DNA from: Campylobacteraceae bacterium
GTDB taxonomy: Bacteria > Campylobacterota > Campylobacteria > Campylobacterales > Sulfurovaceae
Assembly (NCBI GenBank): GCA_027055805.1
Contig: JALUMR010000050.1
Location: 1-39,640 of the forward strand
Length of the DNA: 39,640 bases
Direction: 5' to 3'
Positions within the stretch are counted from its first letter, which is position 1; every line of letters begins with the position of its first letter. A program made the position numbers and the translations under genes. This document shows, in pieces, positions 30,210-39,640 of the stretch. The notes under the pieces are model-generated. The model worked only from the letters and a program-made list of their open reading frames with translations. It was not told where the DNA came from and made no database searches.

Positions 30210-30267
30210 GAAAGGGGTAGCTAAAAGGGATTAGGTTTAAACCTGACCCCTTTTAGCTACCCCTTTC
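30210..30267. repeat. Long near-perfect palindrome 1 in the rplA-rplJ gap
   Basis: GAAAGGGGTAGCTAAAAGGG (30210-30229) is perfectly complementary to 30248-30267; centre AGGTTTAAACCT is itself palindromic; only one mismatch (30230/30247) and one G-T wobble over 58 nt. Confidence 0.97.
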
Positions 30268-30368: not shown

Positions 30369-30412
30369 TAATGAGATAGGGGTCAGACTTAAGTTTGACC
30401 CCTATCTCATTA
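30369..30412. repeat. Long near-perfect palindrome 2 in the rplA-rplJ gap
   Basis: TAATGAGATAGGGGTCA (30369-30385) is perfectly complementary to 30396-30412; centre gACTTAAGTt has one G-T wobble; 44 nt total. Confidence 0.97.
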
Positions 30413-31004: not shown

Positions 31005-31373
31005 ATGGCAACAACTAAAGAAGATGTTTTAGAATTTATTTCAAACATGTCAGTATTAGAGCTTTCTGAGCTTGTAAAAGAATTTGAAGAGCATTTTGGT
31101 GTATCTGCACAGGCTACAGTAGTAGCTGGTGGTGGAGCAGTAGCAGAAGCTACTGAAGAACAAACAGAATTTGACGTAGTACTTACAGATGCAGGTGCTA
31201 AAAAAATCAATGCTATTAAAGTTGTAAGAGCTATTACAGGTCTTGGACTTAAAGAAGCTAAAGCAGCAGTTGAAGAAGCTCCTACAACTCTTAAAGAGGC
31301 TGTATCTAAAGAAGAAGCTGAAGAGTTCAAAAAACAAATCGAAGAAGCTGGTGCTTCTTGTGAGCTTAAATAA
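31005..31373 (+). CDS. rplL: 50S ribosomal protein L7/L12
   Basis: [20 protein letters not shown]...[69 protein letters not shown]. Confidence 0.98.
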
Positions 31374-31391
31374 GTTTTATTTAAGTCACAC

Positions 31392-31420
31392 ATTTCAAAT
31401 GAGCTCTGCTCATTTGAAAT
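31392..31420 (+). promoter_or_regulatory. Stable hairpin in the rplL-rpoB gap (candidate RNA processing site or attenuator)
   Basis: ATTTCAAATGAGC-TCT-GCTCATTTGAAAT, 13-bp perfect stem with 3-nt loop, no downstream U tract. Confidence 0.75.
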
Positions 31421-31443
31421 ACTAAAATATTTCGACCCTTTCT

Positions 31444-31500
31444 TCTACTGTATTAGTAACAGTAGATTATAACTCTTGTGCTGCATTAGTAACAGTACAA
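31444..31500 (+). promoter_or_regulatory. Tandem pair of hairpins with identical ATTAGTA loops in the rpoB leader
   Basis: TCTACTG-T-ATTAGTA-A-CAGTAGA (31444-31466) and TTGTGCTG-C-ATTAGTA-A-CAGTACAA (31476-31500); one C-G to G-C compensatory swap and one A-T to G-T change between the stems. Confidence 0.7.
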
Positions 31501-31608
31501 AATCAAAAAACCATTATCAATTATAATTTCTTTTAGATGTAGTGATGAGCTATTGCGCAATAGTTTCTTTGTATATCTATACATTTATTAACATAAACAT
31601 ACTAATAA

Positions 31609-39640
<8,032 letters not shown>

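What the first reader, a model, noticed from the sequence alone, without database searches (positions are those of the whole stretch)
31444..31500. Tandem rpoB-leader hairpins with an invariant ATTAGTA loop and a compensatory stem change
Two consecutive hairpins, 9 nt apart, have identical 7-nt loops and the CAGTA 3' arm. The stems differ by a C-G to G-C swap and an A-T to G-T change, both preserving pairing. Pairing-preserving divergence with a fixed loop is what a duplicated protein- or RNA-binding hairpin looks like. Its place in the 5' leader of rpoB-rpoC makes control of RNA polymerase synthesis a testable hypothesis. I do not recognise it as a described motif.
Basis: partly seen in the sequence, partly recalled or inferred. 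Interest (0 to 1): 0.72.

Follow-up and report, generated by a model that had tools for sequence, protein, structure and literature searches.

The report
Twin RNA hairpins before rpoB
In one group of uncultured sulfur-oxidising bacteria, the RNA just ahead of the main RNA polymerase gene carries two copies of a small hairpin whose loop never changes while its stem mutates in matched pairs, which suggests an undescribed control element for making the transcription machine.

Summary
HP1 (31444-31466) and HP2 (31476-31500) lie in the 244-nt rplL-rpoB gap. The motif occurs only there in the held genome (MAG, 75% complete). It is conserved: 28 of 34 genomes of the genus have it at E<=1e-4, every one in the rplL-rpoB gap, with a 29th weak match there too. 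None was found in about 300 other genomes of the order or about 400 of the phylum. Across 26 distinct copies, 6 of 8 stem pairs show compensatory changes (covariation 0.50 against 0.22 shuffled, 0/500), and the loop C-AUUAGUA-A is nearly fixed. G-U pairs occur on the mRNA strand (9) but no A-C (0), so the coding-strand RNA is selected, not DNA. The usual loop is 9 nt; the U-A pair that makes HP1 a 7-nt loop is unusual. Each unit also carries a 5' UCUYCU-like tract. Downstream lies a family-wide long hairpin (P3, 31534-31579) that looks like an attenuator or processing site. Sister clades lack the twin hairpins but carry a conserved-loop extension on P3. No Rfam family matches. Best reading: a new genus-level cis-regulatory RNA of rpoBC, recognised through its loop. 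The binding partner and the step controlled are inferred, not shown.

The parts
31005..31373 (+). rplL (ribosomal protein L7/L12), gene upstream of the leader
   Evidence: Pfam PF00542/PF16320; ORF list
31392..31420 (+). P1: 13-bp hairpin just after the rplL stop; sequence varies, pairing kept
   Evidence: inverted repeat 100%; consensus fold of 22 leaders with changes on both sides at 8 of 10 pairs
31444..31466 (+). HP1 (copy 1): TCTACTGT-ATTAGTA-ACAGTAGA
   Evidence: conserved in the tandem-copy leaders
31476..31500 (+). HP2 (copy 2): TTGTGCTG-CATTAGTAA-CAGTACAA; the copy kept in single-copy relatives and the one with most compensatory changes
31441..31464 (+). Repeat unit 1 including the 5' pyrimidine tract (TCTTCTACTG...)
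   Evidence: 24-nt direct repeat, 88% identical, 33-nt spacing
31474..31497 (+). Repeat unit 2 including the 5' pyrimidine tract (TCTTGTGCTG...)
   Evidence: 24-nt direct repeat, 88% identical, 33-nt spacing
31534..31579 (+). P3: long imperfect hairpin with U-rich 3' arm, conserved across the family; candidate attenuator or RNase-III-type processing site
   Evidence: model R2 hit 3.4e-12; pair counts
31607..31610 (+). Shine-Dalgarno-like AAGG of rpoB
   Evidence: sequence reading
31618..35781 (+). rpoB (RNA polymerase beta), controlled gene in the hypothesis
   Evidence: Pfam PF04563/PF04561; ORF list
35781..39638 (+). rpoC (beta prime; named from its place after rpoB), runs off the window
   Evidence: open-ended ORF

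Best explanation
The two hairpins are tandem copies of one cis-acting RNA recognition element in the rpoBC leader of a single genus-level clade of Sulfurovaceae. SHOWN: each unit is a 7-8 bp stem whose sequence drifts in matched pairs, an almost fixed loop C-AUUAGUA-A and a short 5' UCUYCU-like tract; it is selected as coding-strand RNA, and every strong match found sits between rplL and rpoB. INFERRED: a trans-acting factor, most likely an RNA-binding protein (possibly the elongating RNA polymerase itself), reads the loop on the nascent or processed transcript, the two copies raising avidity. MOST LIKELY CONSEQUENCE (inferred): binding changes read-through or processing at the U-rich hairpin P3 about 35 nt downstream, and so sets how much beta and beta-prime is made relative to the ribosomal proteins encoded upstream.
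For: Genus-wide conservation: 28 of 34 genomes at E<=1e-4, all in the rplL-rpoB gap. Covariation 0.503 against 0.220+-0.026 (0/500), 6 of 8 pairs with changes on both sides, and control slides fail. Nine G-U and no A-C cells on the + strand. The loop is asymmetric and nearly invariant while the arms vary, the reverse of a DNA operator. Copy spacing is 33, 34 or 49 nt, so neither reading frame nor helical phase is kept. Copy 1 and copy 2 are recognisable across species, so the duplication is old and both copies are kept. P3 with a nearly invariant U-rich 3' arm lies just downstream in family members. In E. coli an attenuator in this same gap uncouples rpoBC from the r-protein genes (PMC4670729). 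Sister clades lack the hairpins but carry a conserved-loop extension on P3 in 41 of 41 leaders, which fits a swapped recognition site.
Against: No binding partner, transcript map or phenotype is known. P3 has not been shown to terminate or be cleaved: its stem is A/U-rich and the terminator scan did not flag it. One leader with hairpins (L056) has lost most of P3, which weakens the link to P3. Two congeners (G036, G080) have the leader without the hairpins. The species are close relatives, so covariation counts are not independent events, and copy 1 alone shows no double change.
Confidence: 0.55

Rival explanations
1. Translational control: the loop or the 5' tract pairs with the rpoB ribosome-binding region, closing it, and a ligand opens it.
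For: In the window TATTAGTA (31451-31458) is perfectly complementary to TACTAATA (31600-31607), directly before the Shine-Dalgarno. The predicted fold pairs CGACCCUU upstream of HP1 with AAGGUUCG in this and several other leaders. The loop matches the last ~18 nt slightly better than shuffles (5.46 against 4.90+-0.21).
Against: The UACUAAU stretch is missing or changed in several hairpin-bearing leaders (L054, L057, L045, L068). The pyrimidine tract pairs with the Shine-Dalgarno region no better than its own shuffles (-4.66 against -4.66+-0.36). No covariation was seen linking loop and 3' region.
Confidence: 0.15
2. mRNA processing or stability: the hairpins are end-protecting or RNase landing structures separating a long-lived rplL mRNA from the rpoB mRNA.
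For: E. coli has an RNase III site in this gap (PMC2777011). P1, HP1, HP2 and P3 are four consecutive stable structures.
Against: Simple stability hairpins (like P1) keep pairing but not sequence. The 7-9 nt loop here is nearly invariant, which calls for recognition of its letters.
Confidence: 0.15
3. RNA-RNA control: the loop is the target of a trans-encoded small RNA carrying UUACUAAUG.
For: An invariant single-stranded loop shown on a stem is a usual kissing target; two copies would give two sites.
Against: No small-RNA candidate was looked for or found. Changes at the loop edge are tolerated. Genus-only range gives no partner by co-occurrence.
Confidence: 0.08
4. A DNA operator pair (inverted repeats bound by a dimeric regulator) or a dispersed repeat.
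For: Each hairpin is an inverted repeat in DNA, and 33 bp is about three helical turns.
Against: Arms vary while the asymmetric centre is fixed; G-U pairs occur on one strand only (9 against 0); spacing also 34 and 49; only one locus per genome.
Confidence: 0.03

Closest known systems
rplL-rpoB attenuator and RNase III site of Escherichia coli
   Same: Same place in the operon; structured RNA between r-protein genes and rpoBC that uncouples their expression (PMC4670729, PMC2777011)
   Different: No tandem fixed-loop hairpins are described for it in the papers read here; whether P3 terminates or is cleaved is unknown
HK022 put RNA
   Same: Two adjacent stem-loops in nascent RNA, of similar total length (~70 nt in put), acting on transcription downstream of themselves in put (PMC9378689)
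   Different: put is a phage element that binds the beta-prime zinc-binding domain. Here the two units are near-identical repeats with the same loop, and RNAP binding is untested
lambda nut sites / rRNA boxA-boxB antitermination
   Same: Short pyrimidine-rich tract followed by a small hairpin, upstream of a terminator-like structure
   Different: Loop is a 9-nt CAUUAGUAA, not the boxB pentaloop; the tract UCUYCU is not a clear boxA; present twice in tandem
Ribosomal protein leaders (e.g. L10 leader, RF00557)
   Same: Same operon, structured autoregulatory leader upstream of an essential gene set
   Different: No Rfam match at this site; lies before rpoB, not before rplJ

Membership tests
Any Rfam 15 family | covariance-model score above the gathering cut-off | tested here: not met
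   Only tRNAs in the window; in 31300-31650 nothing below E=2 and none near a cut-off
E. coli-type rplL-rpoB attenuator/processing region | structured RNA between rplL and rpoB | tested here: met
E. coli-type rplL-rpoB attenuator/processing region | intrinsic terminator (G+C stem followed by U run) | tested here: inconclusive
   P3 has CUAUUG/CAAUAG followed by UUUYUUUG, conserved in relatives, but the stem is A/U-rich and was not flagged by the scan
E. coli-type rplL-rpoB attenuator/processing region | RNase III cleavage in the gap | not testable with these tools
   needs RNA ends from cells with and without RNase III
HK022 put RNA | two adjacent stem-loops in the nascent RNA | tested here: met
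HK022 put RNA | sequence similarity to putL/putR | not tested
   put sequences were not fetched
HK022 put RNA | factor-free antitermination through the beta-prime zinc-binding domain | not testable with these tools
   needs in vitro transcription
nut / boxA-boxB antitermination site | boxB-type pentaloop hairpin | tested here: not met
   loop is 9 nt C-AUUAGUA-A
nut / boxA-boxB antitermination site | boxA tract upstream of the hairpin | tested here: inconclusive
   conserved UCUYCU/CUCUU-like tract 5' of each unit; rRNA-leader boxA of this genus could not be fixed from one rRNA contig
DNA operator of a dimeric regulator | conserved symmetric arms, variable centre, phase-kept spacing | tested here: not met
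   arms vary, centre fixed, G-U on one strand only, spacing 33/34/49
Dispersed repeat (REP/MITE-like) | many copies at unrelated loci | tested here: not met
   two copies, one locus; strong hits in relatives only in the rplL-rpoB gap

The most novel reading that the evidence does not exclude
An undescribed autoregulatory RNA of RNA polymerase: the tandem CAUUAGUAA hairpins bind RNA polymerase (or a dedicated RNA-binding protein that senses it) on its own rpoBC transcript. The recognition site has moved within the family from the apex of P3 in sister clades to twin upstream hairpins in this genus.
Probability: 0.2. Interest if true: 0.82.

Novelty: new variant of a known kind. Interest (0 to 1): 0.58.

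Why it matters
How cells set the amount of RNA polymerase core is an old question; even in E. coli the control of rpoBC is called complex and still incompletely understood (PMC4670729). This leader offers a compact element (about 25 nt per unit) with clear design rules: a fixed loop, a freely exchangeable stem and a natural copy number of one or two. That makes pull-downs, loop mutants and reporter tests direct. It also gives a comparative handle: sister clades carry a different conserved loop at P3, so both clades can be probed for the same partner.

Tried and rejected
Leader peptide ending at the UAG UAA inside the loop: upstream ORFs are 2-24 codons with differing starts, and copy spacing 34 or 49 breaks the frame. 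Anti-Shine-Dalgarno pairing by the tract 5' of HP1: no better than shuffles of that tract. Alternative hairpin sharing the 3' arm of P3: not above shuffles. rRNA mimicry: no copy of the loop in its stem in the one rRNA contig of the genus. Phage carriers: nine viral contigs match CATTAGTAACNG twice, but all are repeats without the stem, apparently coding repeats. Other sites in the same genomes: matches at E 0.1-0.4 in 34 genomes fit chance. An internal promoter for rpoB: no stronger than shuffles. Literature: no paper found on an rpoB leader motif in Campylobacterota.

Full report
WHAT IS THERE. The window is contig C50 of a 1.8-Mb, 75%-complete metagenome-assembled genome. Its closest named relatives are Campylobacteraceae/Sulfurovum MAGs. 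The gene order nusG-rplK-rplA-rplJ-rplL-rpoB is confirmed by Pfam, and the long ORF after rpoB sits where rpoC belongs. The rplL-rpoB gap is 31374-31617. It holds P1 (31392-31420), HP1 (31444-31466), HP2 (31476-31500), P3 (31534-31579) and the rpoB ribosome-binding site. The whole gap folds far better than shuffles (z = -4.1, 0/200), and so does the twin-hairpin stretch (z = -4.1, 0/200).

CHECK OF THE OBSERVATION. The C-A mismatch in HP2 makes its loop 9 nt, and that is the rule: nearly all copies in relatives read G-C-AUUAGUA-A-C, and HP1 of this genome is unusual in having U opposite A. The unit is larger than the hairpin: a 24-nt direct repeat starting with TCTT, with a C and a U of this tract invariant in all 26 distinct copies.

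CONSERVATION AND COVARIATION. From 80 rplL loci the leaders were cut out. Twenty-four of them, plus the window, carry one or two copies (one further listed match, L103, is a chance hit). On 26 distinct copies, 92.8% of cells pair (shuffled 77.5%), 6 of 8 pairs have changes on both sides, covariation is 0.503 against 0.220+-0.026, none of 500 shuffles reaches it, and sliding the partner by 1-3 columns destroys it. Telling examples are AUAG/CUGU and CAUAG/CUAUG in L036, L053, L056, L061, and UGUGUUA/UAACACA in L045. In orthologous copies alone, copy 2 shows changes on both sides at 6 of 7 pairs, while copy 1 hardly varies and so says little. Among 19 distinct hairpins there are 9 G-U cells and no A-C cells, so the coding-strand RNA is what is kept. 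Caution: these are related species, so cells are not independent events; parsimony on the rpoB tree gives several changes at most pairs, but stray matches entered that count.

RANGE. With model R1, 28 of 34 genomes of the genus have a hit at E<=1e-4, and each lies between rplL and rpoB. A 29th (G109, E = 0.048) lies there too. G036 and G080 have rplL and P3 but no hairpins; in G103, G125 and G115 rplL was not found. No hit at E<=0.01 was found outside the genus in 299 genomes of the order or 397 of the phylum (these ran with stricter filters). On an rpoB tree the hairpins occupy one fully supported clade, 24 of 25 rows, and no row outside it. Single-copy members keep a copy that resembles copy 2. 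One leader (L039) keeps the second stem but has lost the loop letters.

SURROUNDINGS. P1 keeps pairing while its letters change freely, as a plain stability or processing hairpin would. P3 (GAUAYAGNGAYAARCUAUU...AAUAGUUUNUUUGURUAUC) is found in 28 of the 299 genomes searched in the order, all of them in the family (26 outside the genus) and one site each. Its 3' arm, stem plus U-run, is more conserved than its 5' arm, as expected if the U-run has a duty of its own such as termination. In G036 P3 has become a perfect palindrome. All 41 leaders of the sister clades that lack the twin hairpins carry an apical extension of P3 with its own conserved loop (GGAG-ACAUUUCAUACC-CUCC or AGAG-UUAAUAUUUACG-CUCU), and no leader has both. 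That is one evolutionary contrast, so it suggests but does not prove a swap of recognition sites.

HOW IT MOST LIKELY WORKS. Shown: an RNA element under selection for loop letters, stem pairing and position. Inferred: recognition in trans by a protein (or by the elongating polymerase), with two sites for avidity. Inferred with less certainty: the outcome is read-through or processing at P3, because P3 is the next structure downstream, is conserved in the family, and because E. coli has an attenuator and an RNase III site in this same gap. The rival is direct translational control; the loop-complementary UACUAAU beside the Shine-Dalgarno in the window is its best support, but it is not kept in all relatives.

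COMPARISON WITH THE KNOWN. No Rfam family matches. It resembles put RNA in having two stem-loops on nascent RNA (PMC9378689) and nut sites in having a tract plus hairpin, but the loop rules out boxB, and nothing shows polymerase binding. What is said of nut, boxA and boxB rests on general knowledge. It is filed as a new variant of a known kind: a structured regulatory leader of an RNA polymerase operon.

VERDICT. Real, conserved and undescribed in the sources at hand; function well motivated but unproven; range narrow (one genus-level clade, known only from uncultured genomes in this set).

Noticed in passing
window 31534-31579; L145-L172: P3, a family-wide conserved hairpin with U-rich 3' arm in the rpoB leader of Sulfurovaceae, also without an Rfam match; a candidate RNA family of its own.
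   Followed up: partly
L038, L042, L046, L048, L052 and other sister-clade leaders (apex of P3): Apical extension with conserved loop GGAGACAUUUCAUACCCUCC or AGAGUUAAUAUUUACGCUCU, never together with the ATTAGTA hairpins (41 of 41 against 0 of 25 leaders).
   Followed up: partly
window 30210-30267 and 30369-30412: Two very long, nearly perfect inverted repeats (29-nt and 22-nt arms, no spacer) between rplA and rplJ; the core of the second was found nowhere else in the held genome.
   Followed up: partly
L059, L063, L069, L075, L086, L090 (just after rplL): A shared intergenic repeat (..CAGTTGGCTCATGCGAC..GTCGCAT..) sits near or in place of P1; the 17-mer occurs in 15 of 150 family genomes, mostly once.
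   Followed up: partly
L174 (genome G036): P3 has turned into a perfect palindrome GATATACAAAAAAACTATTGCGCAATAGTTTTTTTGTATATC in a congener that lacks the twin hairpins.
   Followed up: no
L056:2873-3078: A leader with both hairpins in which most of P3 is deleted; a natural test of whether the hairpins act through P3.
   Followed up: no
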